A stretch of 64,000 bases of DNA from Rhizomicrobium palustre (GTDB lineage Bacteria > Pseudomonadota > Alphaproteobacteria > Micropepsales > Micropepsaceae): the NCBI RefSeq assembly GCF_011761565.1, contig NZ_JAASRM010000001.1, positions 3,472,139-3,536,138 on the forward strand, read 5' to 3'. Both the position numbers and the translations under genes were made by a program. This document shows positions 48,521 through 57,380 of this stretch, in pieces. The notes under the pieces are model-generated. The model did no database searches and was not told the origin of the DNA. It saw nothing but the letters and a program-made list of their open reading frames with translations. The first letter of the stretch is position 1. The number at the start of each line of letters is the position of its first letter.

Positions 48521-49753
48521 ATGTCAGATTGGTCCGAGCATTATGCGACGCGTGTTTCCCATATGCAGGCGTCGGAAATCCGTGAATTGCTGAAGCTTCT
48601 GGATCAGCCCGACATCATCTCCTTTGCTGGCGGTATTCCGGATCCCGCGCTGTTTCCGCGCGAGGAGATTGCCCAAGCCTATCAGCGCATTCTCGGCGAT
48701 CCGCAGCTCTCGGCGGTGGCGCTGCAATATTCCATCAGCGAAGGTTATCTGCCGCTGCGCGAATGGCTGGCGGGATATATGGGCCGGCTGGGTGTCGCCT
48801 GCACGCCTGAGAACATTCTCATCACCAATGGCTCGCAGCAGGCTCTCGATTTCGTTGGCAAGCTGTTCATTTCGCCAGGAGACAGCATGCTTGTGGCATG
48901 GCCGACCTATCTTGGCGCCTTGCAAGCCTTCAGCAGCTATGAACCGCGTTTCGATGTGCTCCCAGGGGAGAATTCCAATCGCACCTTGGAAAGCTATACT
49001 AGCCAAGGCGCCGCCAAGCCGAAATTCGGTTATGTGATGCCGGAATTCCAGAACCCGACCGGCACCAGCCTCAGCCTTGCCGAACGTGAGCGCCTGCTCG
49101 ATACGGCGGCGGAACTCGATTTACCCCTGGTGGAGGACAGTGCTTACGAAAAGCTGCGCTATGACGGCGAACGCGTGCCGTCGCTCTTGGCACTGGCGGC
49201 TCAGCGCGCTGGCGGGATCGATCACTGCAAGGTGCTTTATTGCGGCACCTTCTCCAAGAGTATAGTTCCGGCACTGCGCATCGGCTGGATCGTGGCCGCC
49301 AAGCCGGTCATTCAGAAGCTGGTGCTGATGAAGCAAGCGAGCGACCTGCATGTCTCCACCTTGAACCAGATGGTCATGCATGAGGTTGCTTCGGCGCGCA
49401 TTGAAGATCTGGCAGCGAATATGCGGCGGGTTTATCGCGCGCGGCGGGATGCCATGCTGGCCGCGCTCGACCGACACATGCCCAAAGGCATCCACTTCAC
49501 GCGCCCGGAAGGTGGAATGTTCGTCTGGGTGACATTGCCGGAAGGGATCGATGGTGCAGAGCTTCTCAAGCGCTGCATAGAAGAGGGGCGGGTCGCCTTC
49601 GTGCCGGGCGCGGCGTTCTTCGCAGATCGCTCCTGCCGCAATACCATCCGCTTGAGCTTCTCCTTGAGCGAACCTGCCAAGATCGATGAAGGCATCAAGC
49701 GTCTGGCGTCGATCCTGAAGCTGGAAATGGCTGAGATGACGCACGCGGCTTGA
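48521..49753 (+). CDS. PLP-dependent aminotransferase, class I/II (LysN/2-aminoadipate-type)
   Basis: A 410-residue fold-type I aminotransferase from ATG 48521 (a GTG directly precedes it). 'IISFAGGIPDPALFP', 'LQYSISEGYLPLREWLA', 'ILITNGSQQALD', 'PEFQNPTG' and PLP lysine K246 ('GTFSKSIVPALRIGW') place it with the 2-aminoadipate/aromatic/MocR-like group. The amino acid substrate cannot be fixed from sequence. It is a single gene with 259 bases of gene-free DNA upstream, and it is convergent with the sulfotransferase cluster. Confidence 0.9.
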   Translation: MSDWSEHYATRVSHMQASEIRELLKLLDQPDIISFAGGIPDPALFPREEIAQAYQRILGDPQLSAVALQYSISEGYLPLREWLAGYMGRLGVACTPENILITNGSQQALDFVGKLFISPGDSMLVAWPTYLGALQAFSSYEPRFDVLPGENSNRTLESYTSQGAAKPKFGYVMPEFQNPTGTSLSLAERERLLDTAAELDLPLVEDSAYEKLRYDGERVPSLLALAAQRAGGIDHCKVLYCGTFSKSIVPALRIGWIVAAKPVIQKLVLMKQASDLHVSTLNQMVMHEVASARIEDLAANMRRVYRARRDAMLAALDRHMPKGIHFTRPEGGMFVWVTLPEGIDGAELLKRCIEEGRVAFVPGAAFFADRSCRNTIRLSFSLSEPAKIDEGIKRLASILKLEMAEMTHAA

Positions 49754-49765
49754 AGCAAGGGAAGG

Positions 49766-50533
49766 CTAGTATGCGGTGTTGGATTTGTTGCGCATACGCT
49801 TAAAGCGCGTGAAGCCCAAATTCACCAAGGCCGCGGTATCGAATTCGGTCATGCCCTCCGCTGTCAGCCGCGCCTCGGCGTATTCCGGCACATGGTCCTG
49901 CGCGCACTTGAATTCCGTATTGGGCACCAGCTTGTTCATGCGTGAGATCGAGCCGTAACACTCCATCGTCGGGCACTGATACATGCAGCCCGCATTGACG
50001 AAGAGGCGTATGCGGGACTTGTCGGCGATGGTGGAAAGCCCCGCAAGATCGTCATTCATGATGGGATGCAGCACCACAACATCATAGTTTTCCAGGAAGC
50101 TCGAAAGCTTATCGAGCGTGCGCACCTGGTTGATCACGGAAGCTTCAAGTTCGAAATCCGGGAAGTCCTCGCGTATCCAGCGGGCGAGTTCAGCGCGCGC
50201 GACGATGACCGAATTACCCTTGCGGTGATATTTGGCAAGAAACGGCTTGCTCGAAAGATATTCCTCGCGCGACGTCACGATATTTTGCAGCGGAATGCGA
50301 TAACCGATGCCGTTATCGTACATCCAATGAATGTCGGCATCGGAAAGCTCCGGGCCGTGATAGATGCGTCCACCATAGAGTGGGGTGTATTCCCGAAAGG
50401 CGAAGACCGACTTGACGGGGATGTCTTCGAAGAAGATAGCGAGAAAGGCGGCAATGGAATTCGACATGGTTTTGCCGCGCGCCGAAACCGAAAAGTCCAA
50501 TGTCTCTGAAAACATATCGTTCCCCATCCGCAT
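49766..50533 (-). CDS. U32 peptidase-like protein with Cys cluster, function unknown
   Basis: A 255-residue protein. Residues 75-180 look like part of a TIM-barrel ('GYRIPLQNI', 'ELARWIREDFPDFELEASVI', 'YDVVVLHPIMND'). Then 'IRLFVNAGCMYQCPTMEC' places Cys at 183, 187 and 192, with a fourth at 210. Similar 'VN.GC...CP' segments occur in U32-type proteins, some of which (UbiU/UbiV) bind a [4Fe-4S] cluster through four Cys. That role here is inference. The ATG follows the stop of the TPR-sulfotransferase gene directly, so it is the last gene of that operon. It may modify or recognise the product of the sulfotransferases. Confidence 0.65.
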   Translation of the reverse strand: MRMGNDMFSETLDFSVSARGKTMSNSIAAFLAIFFEDIPVKSVFAFREYTPLYGGRIYHGPELSDADIHWMYDNGIGYRIPLQNIVTSREEYLSSKPFLAKYHRKGNSVIVARAELARWIREDFPDFELEASVINQVRTLDKLSSFLENYDVVVLHPIMNDDLAGLSTIADKSRIRLFVNAGCMYQCPTMECYGSISRMNKLVPNTEFKCAQDHVPEYAEARLTAEGMTEFDTAALVNLGFTRFKRMRNKSNTAY

Positions 50534-52453
50534 TCAGTCTTTATAGGTGGTCAATGCATCGCCCAGCGCTTCACGCAGCGGCGCAAGCCAGGGCACATAG
50601 TTCTGCCATTGGTCGAGGCCATTTCGGCTGATGGGCTGGCGCACTTGCTCGGAGCTTGGCGTTCGCACGCTGCGCCGCGTGTTGTGGAACTCTAAACAGG
50701 CTTGCTCGAACGGGAGCCCGGAATACGAGAGCAACCGCTGAACACTGCCTTCAAGGTCTTCCACCACATCCTCGTAGTGCAGTTTCAGAACCCGGTCCGG
50801 CAGTACGGCATTCCAATGGCGCATAAGATCGAGATAACTGCGATAGTACCGCGCGATGTGGCGGGCATCGTAGCTGAATTCCTGATTGGTCGTGCCGAAG
50901 AGCTGTTTCAGATTGCTGAAGCAACAGGCCATGGGCTCACGGCGCACATCTATGATGGTGGCACGCGGCAGGATCAGGTGAATAAAACCGATGTGCCAGA
51001 AATTATTCGGCATCTTGTCGATGAAGAAAGGGCGCCCCAGTTTGAGGTATGCGCGGGTCTCCGCGATGAAGCGCTCACCTAACCCGCGCACATCCTCGAC
51101 CGAAAGCTCAAGCAGCGCCTTGGGGTTCGATGGCAGGCCGCAATGGCCGTCCTGACCGCAGATTTTGCCGATATAGCCCGCGATTTCCGTCAGTTCCTGC
51201 GTGCCTTCGATTTGGGAATGGGAGGCGAGGATCTGTTCGATCAAGGTTGATCCCGAACGCGGCAGCCCCACGACGAAGATGGGAGAAGCATCATCGCTGC
51301 CCCAATCTTTGCGCGCTGAGAAAAACTCCGCCGTGAAGGTTTCCTTCAGCCGTGTTACTGCAGCTTCGGCAATATCCGGGCGCCAGCGGCTGGTCGCCCG
51401 CCGCACGGCATTGCCCCGCTTGTAATATTGCCAAGAGGATTCAACGTCGCTCCTGTCTTCCAGGGCCTTGCCCAAGGCAAAGCACAGATAGACGCGATCC
51501 GTGTCCTCAATACCTTGCTGTGCTTCCGCAGCACGCAGGCGTGAGAGTTCGGTATCGCTGAAGTGATAGGTCTTCAGATTGGCAAGGCCAAACCAGGCCA
51601 CGCCATAATCCGGCCGAGCCGCCAGAGCGGCGTGATATTCTGCGATGGCCTCATCTCTGCGGCCGATAATCTTCAGCGCATCTGCGCGCCACAAGTGCAA
51701 ATCCGCCGCTTCCGGTCCTGTTGATGACTGCCCCGCAAGAAGTTTCCCACAGACATCGATGACTGGTTCGTGGTCGCCCAAGCCGATCAAAGCCATGCCG
51801 TATTGCTTGAGATAGGCGCGGTTTTTGGGCTCCAGCTTGAGTAGTTTCTCGGTCTCTTGTCTCGCAGCCAAGTGTTTTTGCCGCTCTAACAAAAGCGCGG
51901 CGTAGTCAAACTGTGCAGCATGGTAGTCCGGCGCCTGCACCAGCACCGCACGGAAGAGCGTCTCGGCCTCATCCAGCGCGCCGCGGGCTTGGCATATGCG
52001 TGCCAAAAGGCGCAAGGCGCCGACATTGCCACTATCTTTGCGCAGGTATTCGCGGATCACATCTTCTGCCGGATCAAGATCGCTATCGGCAAACAGGCTG
52101 TTTGCCACAACCACTTCCGGCGGAAGCTGTTTCAAGGTGGAGAGATTTCTTGCCGCCTGCTCAGCCTCTGCCGTGTAGCCCGCGAGCCGGTAAAGCTGTT
52201 CCAGCATATCCCAACTTGCTGGTAGAGTGGGGTTGAGGCGTACGGCTTCGCGCAGCGCTTCAAGGGCTGCTGGGCCATCCCTGAGGAGCACATGGCAATG
52301 GCCCAGCTCCTGATGGAGGCGGCTAAAGCGGGGATGGACAGAGTGCAATAGTTTGAGGGTGGTCAGAGCTTCCGGCAGGCGCCCTGCGGCGCGAAAGCCG
52401 ATAGCCTTCTTCAACAGAGCGTCGCGCTCGGCAAAATCGATGGTGTTCATCAT
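50534..52453 (-). CDS. TPR-repeat sulfotransferase
   Basis: A 639-residue fusion. Residues 10-310 contain about eight tetratricopeptide-like repeats ('A..LL....KH..A...TEKLL..EP', 'EAIAEYHAALAARPDYGVAWFGLANL'). Residues 390-630 are a sulfotransferase: the PAPS-binding 5' loop is 'PIFVVGLPRSGSTLIEQILASH' (391-412), with later 'INPR'-like 'IDVRREPMACCFSNLKQLF' for the 3'-phosphate. No signal peptide is seen, so it should act in the cytoplasm. It transfers sulfate to an unknown glycan, lipid or peptide held by the repeats. The start overlaps the previous gene by four bases. Confidence 0.88.
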   Translation of the reverse strand: MMNTIDFAERDALLKKAIGFRAAGRLPEALTTLKLLHSVHPRFSRLHQELGHCHVLLRDGPAALEALREAVRLNPTLPASWDMLEQLYRLAGYTAEAEQAARNLSTLKQLPPEVVVANSLFADSDLDPAEDVIREYLRKDSGNVGALRLLARICQARGALDEAETLFRAVLVQAPDYHAAQFDYAALLLERQKHLAARQETEKLLKLEPKNRAYLKQYGMALIGLGDHEPVIDVCGKLLAGQSSTGPEAADLHLWRADALKIIGRRDEAIAEYHAALAARPDYGVAWFGLANLKTYHFSDTELSRLRAAEAQQGIEDTDRVYLCFALGKALEDRSDVESSWQYYKRGNAVRRATSRWRPDIAEAAVTRLKETFTAEFFSARKDWGSDDASPIFVVGLPRSGSTLIEQILASHSQIEGTQELTEIAGYIGKICGQDGHCGLPSNPKALLELSVEDVRGLGERFIAETRAYLKLGRPFFIDKMPNNFWHIGFIHLILPRATIIDVRREPMACCFSNLKQLFGTTNQEFSYDARHIARYYRSYLDLMRHWNAVLPDRVLKLHYEDVVEDLEGSVQRLLSYSGLPFEQACLEFHNTRRSVRTPSSEQVRQPISRNGLDQWQNYVPWLAPLREALGDALTTYKD

Positions 52454-53085
52454 TTCCCCTCGAAGCTGTAGCCGAACAATTCCAGGTCTTGGGCATAGCG
52501 CGCAGCAACGCCATCGATCAGGTCGCGATCATAATATTGGCGATAATCGCCGCGCGTTGTGCTGTTCACGCGCTCGAGCGGGCGGGACGAAATTCCGATA
52601 CGGGCGCAGATCCCCTCATAGGAATCCTGCATGTCTTCCACCCGGCCGACCATATCTGTCAGCAAGGTCTTGCCATCATCGTCCAGAAGCAGCGAGGCTT
52701 GCGCTTGGAAAAGAATGTGCTGTTCCGGCGGGTCGCGGAACAGGAAATGGCGCATCACCTCACGCGGCTGCTGACGAAAAAGATCCCCGCCGCGCAGCAT
52801 GAAGGCGCAATAGGAGACGAAGCGGTCGAACGGATTTCGCACAAAGGCGAATTTGAAATATCTGCCGAAGGCATCCTGGCCGAGATGAGGGCGAACCTGT
52901 CGCAATGCAAGATGGCCATGTTGAAGCGCAGCCAGATCGGCCCAGGGAAAACGTCTGTCCACGAATAATCCCACCTGCTCGAGGTCGTCACCGCTCATCT
53001 GTTCGCGCAAAGCCCGGCGCACGGAATGCGTGCCGGTCTTGGGCACGGCGGCAAAGATGAAGTGATGGCGGTGGGAGATGATCAC
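52450..53085 (-). CDS. Sulfotransferase family 2 protein
   Basis: A 211-residue protein from a GTG start. The 5' PAPS loop is 'FAAVPKTGTHSVRRAL' (about 11-26) and the 3'-phosphate site is R83-N84-P85 with S91 ('FVRNPFDRFVSY'), typical of Sulfotransfer_2 carbohydrate sulfotransferases. No membrane anchor is present. It lies between the TonB receptor (70 bases upstream) and the TPR-sulfotransferase (4-base overlap), so two sulfotransferases are co-expressed and may sulfate one substrate at different positions. Confidence 0.87.
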   Translation of the reverse strand: MIISHRHHFIFAAVPKTGTHSVRRALREQMSGDDLEQVGLFVDRRFPWADLAALQHGHLALRQVRPHLGQDAFGRYFKFAFVRNPFDRFVSYCAFMLRGGDLFRQQPREVMRHFLFRDPPEQHILFQAQASLLLDDDGKTLLTDMVGRVEDMQDSYEGICARIGISSRPLERVNSTTRGDYRQYYDRDLIDGVAARYAQDLELFGYSFEGK

Positions 53086-53105
53086 GGGGCACCTGATATG
53101 GGAAA

Positions 53106-53131
53106 CGCGCCCCCTCGAGGGAGGAGGCGCG
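53106..53131 (-). terminator. Hairpin between the TonB receptor and sulfotransferase genes
   Basis: CGCGCCCCCTC (53106-53116) and GAGGAGGCGCG (53121-53131) pair over 11 positions with one C-A mismatch and a four-base loop. No T-run follows on the minus strand, so it may reduce rather than stop read-through from the receptor gene or protect its 3' end. Confidence 0.5.
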
Positions 53132-53155
53132 CTGAGAGTGTATTAAAGGTACATG

Positions 53156-56029
53156 TCAGAATTTATAGCTGATACCTCCCATATAGGTCGTACCGCTCTG
53201 GGTCTGATTATAGAGGTAGCGGTTCTGGCCCCAGAATTGTGTGTCTTTCTGGTTGGTCAGGTTGACCGCATCCAGCGTGGCCTGCAGCTGGTCCGTGATG
53301 TTGTAGAAGAGGGCCGCATCGACATAATTGCCGCCCGTAAAGCCCCTCGTATCGGCGCTCATTGGGGTGGCGCCGTGGCCCGTGAACCAGCTGCTACGAT
53401 GGCTCAAAGACGCGCGTGCGCCCCAGTCGCTGGTTTCGTAATAAAGGGTGGCGTTGTAGGAGGTGTTCGAAATCCCGGTAATGGATTGCGGGAAGTCGAC
53501 ATAGGTGTAGTTCACCACCGCGCCAAGGTTGTTGAATGGTGCCGGCAGGAAGTCGAACTGGCTCTGTGCGGCCAATTCCACGCCGGTGATCTTCTTGGTG
53601 CCTGGATCATTGATCGGCATCGAGAAGGATTCGAGCAGTGTGTCAGCCGTCGCACCCGGGGTTGTCGCGGGCGAAATTTGAGCCTGGGCATAGGTCAGCG
53701 CATTGCCATTATCGATGCTCCAGGTCTTCGAGGTGATGAAGTTCTTCACGTATTTCTGAAAAACACCGACAGAGATCAGGCCGACTTTGCCGAAATAGTA
53801 TTCCACGCCGAGATCCAGCGTAGTGTCCAGGAAGGGCTTGAGGTTGGGATTGCCGCGCGAAGCCGTGAAGTCGCAATTGCTCTTGGAGTTTGGCGCGGTG
53901 GGATCGCAAGTCGAAGTGTTGTTCTGGAAGGCGCTGCCTTGCGCCGCGATCGAGCCAAGGCTCGGGCGGTTGAGGTTTTGCGTTGCCGTGAAGCGCACCA
54001 GCACCTCCGGCGTCAGCTCCAGCACCGTGTTCAGGGCCGGAAGCAGGCCGTCATAGCTCCCCTTCACATCCGCAGTGCCGAGATAGGCGTAGTTCTTGCC
54101 CTGGATCCAGCCTTGGCTGCGGGTGTCGGTGCTATAGCCGCGCACGCCGATATTGCCGCGGAACGGCTTGCCGAACATTTCGCTGTCCCAGTCAACCTGC
54201 GCGTAATAGGAGACCGTCTTTTCGTCGACCTTGAAGACGTTCTCGATGTCTTTCAGCGCGCCGCCTGTGCCATCCGCCTTAGGCGCAAGACGGTGATATT
54301 CCTTGTACTTCGCAAAGGCCTTGTCGTAATCGCCGATCAGCCACGAGCCGTAGCTGTTGTGGAAGACTGTGGTGATATCGGCGACAGAGGTGCCACGCGT
54401 GATGGCCGTGGTGCCATTGTCGCCGCCGTCATAGTAGTACGACGCGCCGTTCTGCGAGAAATTGTGATAGGCAACACCCGCGCGCAGCGTCACATGCTCG
54501 TCGAGTTTATAGCGCGCGTTCAGCACGCCTTCCTTCAGCTCGGAGGAGTTATTGAAGGCGCGATAGTAGAAGTTATCCATCGCGTAATTGGCCGGATTGG
54601 TCGGGTCCCAGTTGGTGTACTGGAACGAGGCTGAACGCCCGTCCGTGCCGTAATTAGCAATGAGACCGCCCTTGGCGCGCATATAGAGCTTGTCGTCGTA
54701 AGGCGTCTTATAAAGCGACTTCTCGGCGCCGATATGGCCGTCGATGGTGAGCGCATCGGAAACGTCCCAGGTGCCGGTCAGGACGCCTTGGTTGAACACG
54801 TTCAGGTTCTTTTCGCGGCGATGTTCGCTGCCGAAGGTCACGTTGGAGGAATCGGTCATGGTGACATAGCCGTTCGCATCCACCGTGTAGTTGTTGAAGA
54901 CCGTGGCATTCTGGAAGATGGCGGGCCAGGGCGAACCCTTGGGGCCATCCAAATTGGTCGAACCAAGGCCGTTGAGCGGGCGGGTGGCCAGATGCAGCTC
55001 ATCGCGATGAACGGTGAATTCGCCGTGCAGCGCATCGAGGGTCAAGAGGATGTTGTTTGTCGGCTTCCACTGCACCGCCGCGGTGAGGCCCAAACGGTCC
55101 TGCTTGCCGTTCCAGGACGAGATGCGATTGCCATCGGGGAAATAGAGATTGCCCGCGAGGAAGCGCTGCTGCTTGTCGGCGGAAAGATGCGAGATGTCGA
55201 CACCGGACGCGACGAGGTCGAGCGCCTTGCCGGTCTGCTTGCCGGTTTTCGCGTCTGTCGTGGTCGCCCCAAGCAGCGAATAGTTATAGGTGTTGTGGCC
55301 TTCTTCGGTCGTCCGGCGATGGCCATAGGCGACAGAGACGGCGATGCCGAACTTATCGTCCCAATTATAGCTCGCCAGCGCGGCGATGCGCGGCTGCAAG
55401 TCTCCCGTATATTGGTTGCTGCCCGCCTTGGCCGTCACCGCGCCCTTGAAGCCCGTATTGTAATCGAGCGGCTTGCCGGTGAAGAGACCGACCGTACCGG
55501 CCATGCCGCCTTCATTCTGCGAAGCCTGGAAGGTCTTTTCGACTTCGACCTTGGAGAACAGTTCCGAGGCAAAGATGTTAAAGTCGAAAGAGCGGTCGCG
55601 CGAACGCTGGCCGCGGCTGTCCTGCGCGGAGTCGACGTTCCCCAGCACTTCCATGCCATTCAGCTGCACGCGGGCGAAATCAGGCCCGAGACCGCGCAGC
55701 GAAATGCGGCGGCCTTCGCCGGCTTCGCGGGTAATCTGCACACCGGGCAGGCGCTGCAGGGATTCGGCCAGATTGAGTTCCGGGAACTTGGCCATATCTT
55801 CGGCGACAATCGCGTCTTTCAGGATGACGGATTCGCGCTTGATATTGCGCGCCGCGGTCAGCGATTCCTGATAGCTGCCGGTGACGACGACCGTCTCAAC
55901 GGTGTTGCTTGCGACTTGCTGAGCTGATGCAGCAGATGACGTGGCGCCCGCAACCAGCACTGCCGCGCTGGCCATCAATACGCTCTTCAGGCTTGGGCGC
56001 GCGGCCCAAGCGAAATGCTCTCGAGACAT
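53156..56029 (-). CDS. Large TonB-dependent receptor (TIGR01782-type)
   Basis: A 957-residue outer-membrane protein with a signal peptide (about 1-37) and TonB box ETVVVTG (45-51). The plug domain has 'DMAKFPELNLAESLQRLPGVQITREAGEGRRISLRGLGPDFARVQLNGMEVL', followed by a long barrel ending 'GGISYKF'. This is the receptor class expanded in Caulobacter and sphingomonads for plant or other polymer-derived sugars and related compounds. It precedes two sulfotransferase genes on the same strand, hinting at a sulfated or glycan-type substrate, but this is positional. The last residue is Phe, as needed for BAM recognition. Confidence 0.92.
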   Translation of the reverse strand: MSREHFAWAARPSLKSVLMASAAVLVAGATSSAASAQQVASNTVETVVVTGSYQESLTAARNIKRESVILKDAIVAEDMAKFPELNLAESLQRLPGVQITREAGEGRRISLRGLGPDFARVQLNGMEVLGNVDSAQDSRGQRSRDRSFDFNIFASELFSKVEVEKTFQASQNEGGMAGTVGLFTGKPLDYNTGFKGAVTAKAGSNQYTGDLQPRIAALASYNWDDKFGIAVSVAYGHRRTTEEGHNTYNYSLLGATTTDAKTGKQTGKALDLVASGVDISHLSADKQQRFLAGNLYFPDGNRISSWNGKQDRLGLTAAVQWKPTNNILLTLDALHGEFTVHRDELHLATRPLNGLGSTNLDGPKGSPWPAIFQNATVFNNYTVDANGYVTMTDSSNVTFGSEHRREKNLNVFNQGVLTGTWDVSDALTIDGHIGAEKSLYKTPYDDKLYMRAKGGLIANYGTDGRSASFQYTNWDPTNPANYAMDNFYYRAFNNSSELKEGVLNARYKLDEHVTLRAGVAYHNFSQNGASYYYDGGDNGTTAITRGTSVADITTVFHNSYGSWLIGDYDKAFAKYKEYHRLAPKADGTGGALKDIENVFKVDEKTVSYYAQVDWDSEMFGKPFRGNIGVRGYSTDTRSQGWIQGKNYAYLGTADVKGSYDGLLPALNTVLELTPEVLVRFTATQNLNRPSLGSIAAQGSAFQNNTSTCDPTAPNSKSNCDFTASRGNPNLKPFLDTTLDLGVEYYFGKVGLISVGVFQKYVKNFITSKTWSIDNGNALTYAQAQISPATTPGATADTLLESFSMPINDPGTKKITGVELAAQSQFDFLPAPFNNLGAVVNYTYVDFPQSITGISNTSYNATLYYETSDWGARASLSHRSSWFTGHGATPMSADTRGFTGGNYVDAALFYNITDQLQATLDAVNLTNQKDTQFWGQNRYLYNQTQSGTTYMGGISYKF

Positions 56030-56228
56030 AATTACCCCTCCACAACCGATGTGACCCAGCCGTTCGATGGAACGGCCACCTCAGGTCACGCCGAATGTGC
56101 CAAGCAATTACGGAGCATTTTGTTCTGTCTTATTGCAGGTGTGTGACATTATGTGGAAATGAGCGATTGGTGTGTGGTTTTCGTGTTGGTTTGCGTGATG
56201 CTTGCGTTGAGCTTGGGCGATGTTCTGC

Positions 56229-57380
56229 CTAGGATTGCAGCACCGCGCGGCCATTGCACCAGAGCCTACGCACCACGGGCGTATCGCCCACCTTGCGGAA
56301 GCACAACAAATCGGCACGCAGGCCTGGTTTCAGATGGCCGCGATCCGAAAGACCAGCAATATCGGCGATTTTCCAAGTCGCCATGGCGAGCGTCTGATGC
56401 AGCGGCAAATCGCAATCCCGTTCCAGTTTGAGGATTGCCTGCAAAAGGCTCGCGGGCACGTAATCGGAAGAAAGCCCGTCGAGCACGCCCAGCCGCGCCA
56501 GTTCACTTGCCGAAACGCCGCCGGAATGAGAGCCGCCGCGCACCACATTAGGTGCACCTGCCACCGTCGCCATGCCGCGCTCATGGGCGGCGCGCGCAGC
56601 CTCCACCGTGGTCGGGAATTCGGAAATCACCGCGCCCATTTTCTGCGCCTGCTCGACATCTTCTATTGTCGTGTCGTCATGGGTAGCCAGCGGGACGTTC
56701 TTGCTCGCTAGCATTTCGGCCAGCTTCGGCCAGTTGCGCGCCACATGGATGGGACCAGTCTGCATCTCCTCGCGCACGCTGGCTTCGAATTCCTCATCGC
56801 TCTCGACTTTGGAGATTTTGTTGTAGCGCTTGAGGTCATCAAGATTGCGCCATTGGCGCTGGCCGGGCGTGTGATCCATCAGCGAGACGAGGCGCACCAG
56901 CTTGTGATCGATATAGGGCGCGACATCCTCGATCAGATTTTCGCCGCTCAGCTCGCAGCGGATATGGATCAGGTGATCGGTGCGGAACAGATTTTTGGCG
57001 CTGCCGGTCGTGATCGCGTCCATGGTGTGGGCGAAGATCGAGCGGCGATACTCTTTCTTGCCATAGGGCGTGCCAGCCGAGACGCTGTCATAGACCGTGG
57101 TAATGCCAGCACCAGCTAGATCATTGTCATGGGCCAGCGCCGCAGCAAGCCCATCCGGCCAGAATACACCGGGACGCGGCATGAAGTGCTTTTCGAGGTT
57201 GTCCGTATGTACCTCGATCAGGCCGGGGCAAAGATAATCACCCTCGGCATCGATCGCGCTTGGCAAGGCCGTGCTGGTTTGGTCGATCGCTTTAATGCCA
57301 TTCGCATCGAATACCAGGGTTCCGCGTACCGACTCGTTCTCCAAGACCAAGGTTGCATTGGTGATAACAGTCTCACGCAT
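56229..57380 (-). CDS. phnM: Alpha-D-ribose 1-methylphosphonate 5-triphosphate diphosphatase PhnM
   Basis: A 383-residue amidohydrolase-fold enzyme that removes pyrophosphate from the C-P lyase intermediate. 'YLCPGLIEVHTDNLEKHFMPRPGVFWP' holds the HxD metal site (H58, D60); 'THDDT' and 'PNVVRGGSHSGGVSA' follow, typical of PhnM. It is the last gene of the phn operon and overlaps phnL by eight bases. No phnN or phnP follows within the window. Confidence 0.95.
   Translation of the reverse strand: MRETVITNATLVLENESVRGTLVFDANGIKAIDQTSTALPSAIDAEGDYLCPGLIEVHTDNLEKHFMPRPGVFWPDGLAAALAHDNDLAGAGITTVYDSVSAGTPYGKKEYRRSIFAHTMDAITTGSAKNLFRTDHLIHIRCELSGENLIEDVAPYIDHKLVRLVSLMDHTPGQRQWRNLDDLKRYNKISKVESDEEFEASVREEMQTGPIHVARNWPKLAEMLASKNVPLATHDDTTIEDVEQAQKMGAVISEFPTTVEAARAAHERGMATVAGAPNVVRGGSHSGGVSASELARLGVLDGLSSDYVPASLLQAILKLERDCDLPLHQTLAMATWKIADIAGLSDRGHLKPGLRADLLCFRKVGDTPVVRRLWCNGRAVLQS

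What the first reader, a model, noticed from the sequence alone, without database searches (positions are those of the whole stretch)
49766..56029. Receptor-sulfotransferase-Cys-cluster gene group of unknown purpose
Four same-strand genes encode a large TonB receptor, a family 2 sulfotransferase, a TPR-sulfotransferase and a U32-like protein with four cysteines (183, 187, 192, 210). The last three are joined by a 4-base overlap and a direct stop-start junction. The sulfotransferase motifs are clear; the joint role is not. One possibility is sulfation of a surface glycan or peptide linked to the receptor's substrate; another is that the receptor is only a neighbour. I know of no described system of this composition.
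Basis: partly seen in the sequence, partly recalled or inferred. Interest (0 to 1): 0.6.

Follow-up and report, generated by a model that had tools for sequence, protein, structure and literature searches.

The report
Iron-sulfur hydroxylase-like partner of sulfotransferases
Next to an outer-membrane receptor gene sit two sulfate-adding enzymes and an unusual cysteine-rich barrel protein, and relatives of that barrel protein in other bacteria and in viruses of bacteria are often fused to, or placed beside, sulfate-adding enzymes, which suggests a hydroxylate-then-sulfate system for surface-related proteins or peptides that we did not find described.

Summary
The four genes are real, and the four cysteines are kept in 58 of 58 family sequences. 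The group is not a chance neighbourhood. The three genus genomes with the U32-like gene (of 37) share the order TBDR-ST2-TPR-ST-U32. Two genus-mates keep the first three genes but have two Asp/Asn-hydroxylase genes, one in the U32 slot, instead. The model's best solved match is the U32 protein 5d88 (Z 16.9, next 11.4); Pfam cut-off and canonical Cys spacing are not met. Of 32 dereplicated loci, 14 have a sulfotransferase fused or within 3.5 kb, 12 a 2OG/Asp-hydroxylase-like gene, 21 either, 11 neither. Settings include fusions, lasso-type clusters and phage cassettes with APS kinase. TPR-STs lie near TonB receptors in 19 of 30 and 12 of 27 loci. Best reading: a cytosolic hydroxylase, oxygen-independent here, makes a hydroxyl that sulfotransferases sulfate, on a polypeptide, possibly the receptor. 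Fe-S binding, hydroxylation and target are inferred. A conserved terminator-like hairpin separates receptor and enzyme genes. Eight literature searches found no such system.

The parts
53156..56029 (-). TonB-dependent receptor gene, 957 aa (TIGR01782 class)
   Evidence: orthologues 70-79% identical in G007, G010, G016, G029
52450..53085 (-). ST2: 211-aa Sulfotransfer_2 family protein (GTG start), 5'-PSB-like VPKTGTHS; no signal peptide seen by eye
   Evidence: PF03567 E 5e-15
50534..52453 (-). TPR-ST: 639-aa TPR array + Sulfotransfer_3 domain (residues 391-583), GLPRSGST motif; among solved structures the TPR part is nearest O-GlcNAc transferase, the catalytic part protein-tyrosine sulfotransferase
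49766..50515 (-). U32-like TIM-barrel protein, likely 249 aa (ORF open to 50533, 255 aa)
   Evidence: start judged from homologues
49904..49987 (-). Four invariant Cys codons: C183 (49985-49987), C187 (49973-49975), C192 (49958-49960), C210 (49904-49906), numbering of the 255-aa ORF; spacing C-x3-C-x4-C-x17-C
   Evidence: 58 of 58 family sequences, window included
53104..53133 (-). Terminator/attenuator-like hairpin (13 pairs, then U-rich) between TBDR and ST2
   Evidence: z -4.57; same element in L011, L012, L127, L128; not flagged by the consensus scan
56036..56100 (-). Conserved stem-loop in the 5' leader of the TBDR gene
   Evidence: 5 genomes; 3 of 21 pairs with a compensatory change, 8 of 21 broken in at least one genome
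56229..57380 (-). phnM, nearest gene of the upstream phosphonate cluster; context of the receptor, not part of the sulfation module
   Evidence: TIGR02318, NF011984

Best explanation
The three genes downstream of the receptor form a cytosolic hydroxylate-then-sulfate tailoring module. The U32-like protein is a remote member of the U32 fold that binds an Fe-S cluster through its four cysteines and installs a hydroxyl group without O2. The sulfotransferases (TPR-ST, with an OGT-like TPR arm that grips a polypeptide, and ST2) transfer sulfate from PAPS to hydroxyl acceptors. The target is a polypeptide; the best single candidate is the neighbouring TonB-dependent receptor before export, with a separate small peptide or a surface component as alternatives. 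Two sister genomes carry O2-dependent Asp/Asn beta-hydroxylases where this genome has the U32-like enzyme. SHOWN here: gene order, conservation, fold, fusions, the difference in hydroxylase genes at one locus, receptor/TPR-ST pairing. INFERRED: Fe-S cluster, hydroxylation, order of steps, cytosolic place, polypeptide target, receptor as target. My step-wise odds: functional coupling of the U32-like protein with sulfotransferases 0.9; hydroxylation 0.55; polypeptide target 0.55; receptor as that target 0.35.
For: (1) Fold: AF2 model pLDDT 85.7, pTM 0.85; its only solved match at E 1e-3 or better is U32 protein 5d88, Z 16.9 against 11.4 for the next. A second model, of the Bacteroidetes member, gives 5d88 first again (E 4.9e-8; two MTHFR chains follow at 9e-4 and 1e-3), Z 16.8 against 11.6 (the two alignments overlap). 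U32 oxidases are O2-independent hydroxylases with 4-Cys clusters (PMC6747719, PMC11574389, passages read). (2) Four Cys in 58 of 58 family sequences, window and near-copies included. (3) Coupling: a sulfotransferase is fused in 3 (L021, L023, L024) and within 3.5 kb in 11 more of 32 dereplicated loci, the window among them. Nine of the 14 were seen above a Pfam cut-off (window, L019, L020, L021, L023, L024, L025, L026, L027); L012 is a close homologue of the window's pair; L028, L029, L032 and L034 are called only by homology to these. The partners belong to different Pfam sulfotransferase families, and the label needs at least 7 changes on the tree. (4) Gene swap: G016 and G029 keep TBDR, ST2 and TPR-ST, lack the U32-like gene and carry two Asp/Asn-hydroxylase-like genes, one directly after TPR-ST; the 326-aa one has no match at E 1e-10 in G000, G007 or G010. 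(5) Phage cassettes L026 and L027 hold U32-like, 2OG-type, sulfotransferase and APS kinase genes (the L026 2OG match is below cut-off), near tail-fibre-type genes. (6) A PF01136 pair that looks like UbiU/UbiV is in 13 of 37 genus genomes: 3 of 3 U32-like carriers, 0 of 2 hydroxylase-variant genomes. (7) TPR-ST resembles O-GlcNAc transferase TPRs (E 2e-14) and protein-tyrosine sulfotransferase (E 3e-9). (8) The genome has APS kinase.
Against: No chemistry is shown. The Pfam U32 score is below cut-off; the Cys spacing differs from CX6CX15CX3/4C; profile comparison with the genus's UbiU- and UbiV-like proteins gives no significant match (E 0.025 and 0.074). 11 of 32 loci have neither a sulfotransferase nor a 2OG-like gene within 3.5 kb (several contigs are cut short), among them L018; G115 pairs the protein with a TPR-GT41 glycosyltransferase. 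One marine phage group pairs it with hem-type genes. Sulfotransferase and oxygenase seeds were picked, partly by eye, from the near set, so the near/far contrast (16 of 243 against 1 of 193; 24 of 243 against 0 of 193) is biased upward. Of 19 oxygenase seeds, 8, 6, 3 and 1 matched 2OG_3, Asp_Arg_Hydrox, 2OG_5 and JmjC_2 at E 0.01, but most were not checked one by one against cut-offs. The UbiUV pattern rests on 5 related genomes. A terminator-like hairpin separates the receptor from the module. The 47%-identical TBDR of G033 has no TPR-ST beside it in the stretch read (L131). Nothing shows that the receptor is the substrate.
Confidence: 0.45

Rival explanations
1. The same enzymes act on a glycan or lipid of the surface (LPS, capsule, exopolysaccharide), not on a polypeptide; the receptor merely binds or is regulated with it.
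For: ST2 belongs to PF03567, a family I recall as mostly carbohydrate sulfotransferases; by eye, glycosyltransferase-like genes lie in L020 and sugar-nucleotide genes in L135 and L048/L055.
Against: No glycan gene recognised by eye among the ORFs at 44-62 kb; TPR-ST resembles OGT and protein-tyrosine sulfotransferase; cassettes sit with receptor, lasso-type or tail-fibre-type genes.
Confidence: 0.25
2. The U32-like protein works with the sulfotransferases but does other chemistry (another redox step, a dehydration, sulfur handling) or is a non-catalytic recognition partner.
For: Cys spacing differs from known U32 oxidases; no sequence-level link to UbiU/UbiV; fold alone shows no function.
Against: Asp/Asn-hydroxylase genes stand in its slot in two sister genomes, and 2OG-like genes lie near it in 12 of 32 loci.
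Confidence: 0.22
3. The receptor group is a phosphorus-acquisition locus and the sulfation genes are passengers; TBDR imports phosphonates or phospholipid fragments and the enzymes modify something unrelated.
For: TBDR homologues lie beside phn genes (G000, G007, G010), a Phn-HD oxygenase and a phospholipase-C-type gene (G016, G029) or an AEP ABC transporter (G033, without TPR-ST nearby).
Against: TBDR/TPR-ST pairing recurs with other TBDRs and in other families of the class, so it is not confined to this receptor group.
Confidence: 0.15
4. Coincidence: unrelated genes brought together by horizontal transfer.
For: Patchy distribution (3 of 37 genus genomes; 4 of 398 in the phylum sample); 11 of 32 loci without either partner type.
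Against: Three fusions, and adjacency to sulfotransferases in several branches of the tree.
Confidence: 0.05

Closest known systems
U32 oxidases (UbiU/UbiV, TrhP, RlhA)
   Same: TIM barrel nearest to U32 protein 5d88; four conserved cysteines
   Different: Cys spacing C-x3-C-x4-C-x17-C instead of CX6CX15CX3/4C; below the Pfam cut-off; often linked to sulfotransferases; no RNA or quinone gene noticed beside it
Tyrosylprotein sulfotransferases and bacterial RaxST (RaxST: search listing only)
   Same: PAPS-type sulfotransferase domains; TPR-ST nearest to protein-tyrosine sulfotransferase among solved structures
   Different: TPR array fused, receptor gene as neighbour, companion hydroxylase-like gene
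Lasso-peptide tailoring: canucin Fe/2OG Asp hydroxylase and the putative sulfotransferase of Firmicutes lasso clusters (PMC8498205, passages read)
   Same: Hydroxylase or sulfotransferase as tailoring gene; L020 and, in part, L135 relatives lie in lasso-type clusters
   Different: No such cluster recognised among the window genes read; the hydroxylase-like protein is U32-like
TPR-glycosyltransferases of family 41 (OGT, SPINDLY, bacterial FlmG; FlmG recalled)
   Same: TPR arm plus catalytic domain; in G115 a TPR-GT41 gene lies directly before the U32-like gene
   Different: Transfers sugar, not sulfate

Membership tests
U32 family (peptidase U32 / U32 oxidases) | U32 TIM-barrel fold | tested here: met
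   5d88 top, Z 16.9 and 16.8, well above the next rows
U32 family (peptidase U32 / U32 oxidases) | Pfam PF01136 at or above its cut-off | tested here: not met
   11.4 bits against 22.4; of the U32-like relatives scanned, one 11.4 bits (L006), the others no PF01136 match
U32 family (peptidase U32 / U32 oxidases) | CX6CX15CX3/4C motif | tested here: not met
   C-x3-C-x4-C-x17-C in the window protein; four Cys in 58 of 58. The motif is from PMC6747719, which itself gives different motifs for UbiU and UbiV
U32 family (peptidase U32 / U32 oxidases) | Profile-level sequence kinship with UbiU/UbiV | tested here: inconclusive
   hhalign E 0.025 and 0.074, probability 2.0 and 0.8%; shallow alignments
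U32 family (peptidase U32 / U32 oxidases) | [4Fe-4S] cluster and prephenate-dependent hydroxylation | not testable with these tools
   needs protein chemistry
PAPS-dependent sulfotransferases | Sulfotransferase domain above Pfam cut-off and a 5'-PSB-like loop | tested here: met
   PF13469 158.8 bits (TPR-ST), PF03567 56.8 bits (ST2); GLPRSGST and VPKTGTHS in the sequences (the motif is recalled)
PAPS-dependent sulfotransferases | PAPS supply in the same genome | tested here: met
   APS kinase PF01583 E 6.5e-71 at G000:C1:255253-255699
Protein-tyrosine sulfotransferases | Sulfates tyrosine in a protein | not testable with these tools
   similarity only: 8w5z E 3e-9, 5wrj E 3e-4
Lasso-peptide cluster | B1/B2/cyclase genes beside the module in the window | tested here: inconclusive
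   none recognised by eye among the ORFs at 44-62 kb (7 of them scanned in Pfam); the genome was not scanned for them. L020 has B2 (NF033537, above cut-off), PqqD and Asn synthase; L135 has PqqD and an Asn synthase below the lasso-cyclase cut-off

The most novel reading that the evidence does not exclude
A so far undescribed post-translational system, shared by bacteria and their phages: an oxygen-independent U32-fold Fe-S hydroxylase (interchangeable with 2OG hydroxylases) puts a hydroxyl group on receptor-class proteins or peptides (TonB receptors, lasso-type peptides, phage tail fibres), and partner sulfotransferases, sometimes fused to it, sulfate that hydroxyl, tuning what the cell surface or the phage tip binds.
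Probability: 0.2. Interest if true: 0.92.

Novelty: new variant of a known kind. Interest (0 to 1): 0.74.

Why it matters
In the passages read, U32 oxidases are known only from quinone and RNA hydroxylation; a branch tied to sulfotransferases would extend this chemistry to proteins or peptides. It would give a concrete reason why TPR-sulfotransferases sit beside TonB receptors, and why some phage contigs carry hydroxylase-like, sulfotransferase and APS kinase genes near tail-fibre genes. The prediction is directly testable: a sulfate (+79.96 Da) on a residue that also gained oxygen (+15.99 Da), depending on these genes.

Tried and rejected
Rejected: (a) U32-like gene as a lone oddity: 14 of 32 loci have a sulfotransferase partner. 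(b) Receptor as chance neighbour: 19 of 30 and 12 of 27 TPR-ST loci have a TBDR within 1.5 kb. With a density taken from the 58 first-look candidates in G000, about 10% would be expected per locus; the loci are related and some of the 14 TBDR seeds come from these same loci, so the binomial values are only a guide. (c) A small precursor-peptide gene in the group: among short ORFs upstream of TBDR and downstream of the U32-like gene I saw, by eye, none shared by all three genomes; one upstream ORF is alike in L011 and L012 but not in the window, and it overlaps the conserved leader stem-loop. Not exhaustive. (d) A known RNA element in the TBDR leader: Rfam's gathering threshold gives only two tRNAs in the window. 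(e) Sigma-70-type promoter: none in 49600-56400, 2.6 expected from shuffles; the terminator scan gave 6 sites (6.8 expected), not including the conserved hairpin, which folding and comparison show. (f) Annotated collections: L021's fused protein had no match in 'phages' and the window protein none in 'plasmids'; the reverse pairs were not run. (g) PHROGs: no match better than E 0.07 for the window protein and none for L020 and L021. (h) The remote U32-like pairs in G056, G188 and G285 (22-25% identity) are another branch; in A2 C183, C187 and C210 are invariant, C192 is not. They served as outgroup and were not counted. (i) Profile comparisons with UbiU, UbiV and the oxygenase set gave nothing significant. 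(j) BFVD fold search: best match a phage OLB35 protein named 'Peptidase' (E 1.5e-8); not followed up.

Rows dropped before counts: 61 U32-domain hits were collapsed to 33 groups at 90% identity; the second L029 copy was dropped for the 32-locus count; L072 and L073 (cut by contig ends) are in the 32 but not in the tree; domains under 200 aa were left out of the 58. The TPR-ST counts use the loci the tool returned (30 of the many matches; 27, L121 being in both sets and the window's own left out of the second). The output was cut; L028-L039 were printed again.

Literature: searches in the held open-access library; no paper describing a U32/sulfotransferase or TBDR/TPR-sulfotransferase system appeared in the listings, which were capped (for example 20 of 271, 8 of 153). 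Subscription papers are not covered.
Full report
What is there. On the minus strand of a 4.26-Mb genome (window = G000:C1:3472139-3536138; close relatives are titled Alphaproteobacteria) lie, in order of reading, a TonB-dependent receptor (TBDR, 53156-56029), a 211-aa Sulfotransfer_2 protein (ST2, 52450-53085), a 639-aa TPR + Sulfotransfer_3 protein (TPR-ST, 50534-52453) and a U32-like ORF (49766-50533). Upstream is phnM and further genes that I name phn by eye (the PhnJ-like ORF had no NCBIfam match); downstream, on the other strand, an aminotransferase. The U32-like ORF has exactly four cysteines, at 183, 187, 192 and 210. Close homologues begin at the second ATG, so the gene is probably 49766-50515 and the 'stop-start junction' is probably not real.

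The U32-like protein. Pfam's U32 model scores below cut-off (11.4 against 22.4 bits). An AlphaFold2 model built on 20 sequences has pLDDT 85.7 and pTM 0.85. Against solved structures the only match at E 1e-3 or better is 5d88, the U32 protein Mk0906 (E 3.5e-6); VIA-align gives Z 16.9 over 220 residues at 3.7 A, next row 11.4. A second model, of the Bacteroidetes relative in L020, again finds 5d88 first (E 4.9e-8, followed by two MTHFR chains just under 1e-3; Z 16.8, next 11.6). All 58 family sequences of at least 200 residues, the window's and near-copies included, keep all four cysteines. Their spacing here, C-x3-C-x4-C-x17-C, differs from the CX6CX15CX3/4C of most U32 proteins (PMC6747719, passages). 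Profile comparison with UbiU- and UbiV-like proteins of the genus and class is not significant. So this looks like a separate branch of the U32 fold; membership by sequence is not shown. Published U32 oxidases hydroxylate quinones and RNA bases without O2; 4Fe-4S clusters were shown for UbiU and UbiV (PMC6747719 and PMC11574389, passages).

Distribution. The gene is rare and patchy: 3 of 37 genus genomes (two more genus genomes without it); 6 of 385 class genomes, of which only G000 and G115 belong to this branch while G056, G086, G188 and G285 match weakly; 4 of 398 in the phylum sample; 1 of 78 in one order; 5 loci in GTDB contigs, two of them G007 and G010 again (exact-pattern prefilter, 55 candidates); 50 loci in IMG/VR (74 candidates).

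Partners of the U32-like protein. In the genus all three carriers have TBDR-ST2-TPR-ST-U32 beside phn-type genes. In a Xanthomonadales MAG the gene is followed one base later by a TPR-ST (L019). In a Bacteroidetes MAG it lies between sulfotransferases beside lasso-peptide genes: B2 protein NF033537, PqqD, Asn synthase (L020). In G431 (L023/L135), in G419 (L024/L136) and in an IMG/VR contig (L021) it is fused to a sulfotransferase domain; within 7 kb G431 also has PqqD, an ABC transporter and an Asn synthase whose best NCBIfam match is the lasso cyclase, below its cut-off. In G486 it overlaps a sulfotransferase gene by 4 bases (L025). In phage contigs L026 and L027 it lies with 2OG-type, sulfotransferase and APS kinase genes (the L026 2OG match is below cut-off); L032 has a sulfotransferase-like gene below cut-off and an APS kinase. 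In L026 a tail-fibre gene with Mtd_N and S74 domains ends 2.7 kb upstream; L027 and L032 have weaker tail-fibre matches upstream. After dereplication, 14 of 32 loci have a sulfotransferase fused (3) or within 3.5 kb (11), 12 a 2OG- or Asp/Asn-hydroxylase-like gene, 21 either, 11 neither. Nine of the 14 were seen above a Pfam cut-off; L012 is a close homologue of the window's genes; L028, L029, L032 and L034 are called by homology only. Oxygenase calls rest on 19 seeds of which 8, 6, 3 and 1 match a 2OG or Asp-hydroxylase type family at E 0.01 (members not listed singly). ORFs further than 3.5 kb away: sulfotransferase 1 of 193, oxygenase 0 of 193; near ones 16 of 243 and 24 of 243. The seeds came from the near set, which inflates the contrast. 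On the tree the sulfotransferase label needs at least 7 changes (quick tree, 11 of 32 inner branches weak), and the partners are of different sulfotransferase families: this fits repeated recruitment better than one inherited pair. Exceptions: L018 (no partner seen), G115 (TPR-GT41 gene in front; a 2OG-like gene, by eye, about 1 kb away on the other strand), and a marine phage group with hemF and other hem-like genes.

The gene swap. G016 and G029 of the same genus have orthologues of TBDR (71 and 70% identity), ST2 and TPR-ST (71%) in the same order, but no U32-like gene. They carry a 203- or 205-aa Asp/Asn-hydroxylase-like gene between ST2 and TPR-ST and a 326-aa one directly after TPR-ST (PF05118 E 1.2e-9 for the 205-aa protein, 1.5e-14 and 9.6e-16 for the 326-aa ones; the 203-aa one by homology). 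The 326-aa hydroxylase has no match at E 1e-10 in G000, G007 or G010. A PF01136 pair that looks like UbiU/UbiV, a mark of O2-independent hydroxylation, is in 13 of 37 genus genomes, in all 3 U32-like carriers and in neither hydroxylase-variant genome; with five related genomes this is only suggestive. I read the swap as one task, hydroxylation, done by two unrelated enzyme types. It is the main reason for proposing hydroxylation; fold and neighbours alone would not suffice.

Receptor and TPR-ST. TPR-ST's TPR part is closest to O-GlcNAc transferase (E 2e-14) and its catalytic part to protein-tyrosine sulfotransferase (E 3e-9) among solved sequences, which speaks for a protein target. Of 30 TPR-ST loci (the best one in each of 30 genomes in and near the genus), 19 have a TBDR within 1.5 kb. 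Of 27 in a wider class sample, 12 do, 9 of 24 when the genus's own three are left out, and 12 of the 14 with E below 1e-100. TBDR lies upstream in some and downstream in others, so the pairing has been formed or rearranged more than once. TBDR homologues of this group sit in phosphorus loci: phn genes (G000, G007, G010), Phn-HD oxygenase TIGR03276 with a phospholipase-C-type gene (G016, G029; the L128 match is partial and below cut-off), and a 2-aminoethylphosphonate ABC transporter (G033, TBDR 47%, no TPR-ST beside it in the stretch read). The receptor may thus import organophosphorus compounds; this is inference from neighbours.

Transcription. Between TBDR and ST2 the five genomes with this locus keep a strong GC hairpin followed by U residues (window 53104-53133; energies of the folded stretches -26.6 to -35.7 kcal/mol, z -2.3 to -4.6). 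The consensus scan did not flag it and found no sigma-70-like promoter in the group. I expect abundant receptor mRNA and some read-through for the enzymes; not shown.

Conclusion. Functional coupling of this U32-fold branch with sulfotransferases is well supported, though 11 of 32 loci show no partner of either type. Hydroxylation before sulfation is the most economical reading; a polypeptide target is somewhat more likely than not; the receptor as target is a guess worth testing. The parts are known; no report of the combination appeared in eight searches of the open-access library. A putative sulfotransferase and a 2OG hydroxylase have each been reported in lasso clusters (PMC8498205, passages), so that part is not new.

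Noticed in passing
window 56036-56100 (-): Conserved stem-loop in the 5' leader of the TBDR gene, seen in five genomes with 3 of 21 pairs showing a compensatory change; no Rfam match there.
   Followed up: partly
L035:2803-4403 and relatives (L031-L041): Marine phage contigs carry hemF (PF01218, E 6e-90, tested in L040 only), with hemB-like and hemC-like genes (by eye) next to the U32-like gene.
   Followed up: partly
L045:1650-3221: Tryptophan halogenase (PF04820, E 6e-90) in a viral contig near a U32-like gene and a 2OG-like gene (the latter by eye).
   Followed up: partly
L130:2437-9387; L132; L133: Other TBDR + TPR-ST pairs lie beside a phosphocholine-specific phospholipase C gene (TIGR03396, E 1e-245 in L130; L132 and L133 by eye).
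   Followed up: partly
L004/L005, L014, L015 (G056, G285, G188): A remote branch of U32-like proteins occurs as paired genes around one or two small unknown genes in small genomes of the class.
   Followed up: no
G003, G011, G013, G035: Some genus genomes carry tandem TPR-sulfotransferase genes; G003 has 15 matches at E 1e-30.
   Followed up: no
L184:3-281: In G255 another TPR-ST gene has an Asp/Asn-hydroxylase-like stretch beside it on the opposite strand (E 2e-15).
   Followed up: no
BFVD entry A0A3G3MCS7: A protein of Escherichia phage OLB35 named 'Peptidase' is the best viral fold match of the U32-like model (E 1.5e-8).
   Followed up: no
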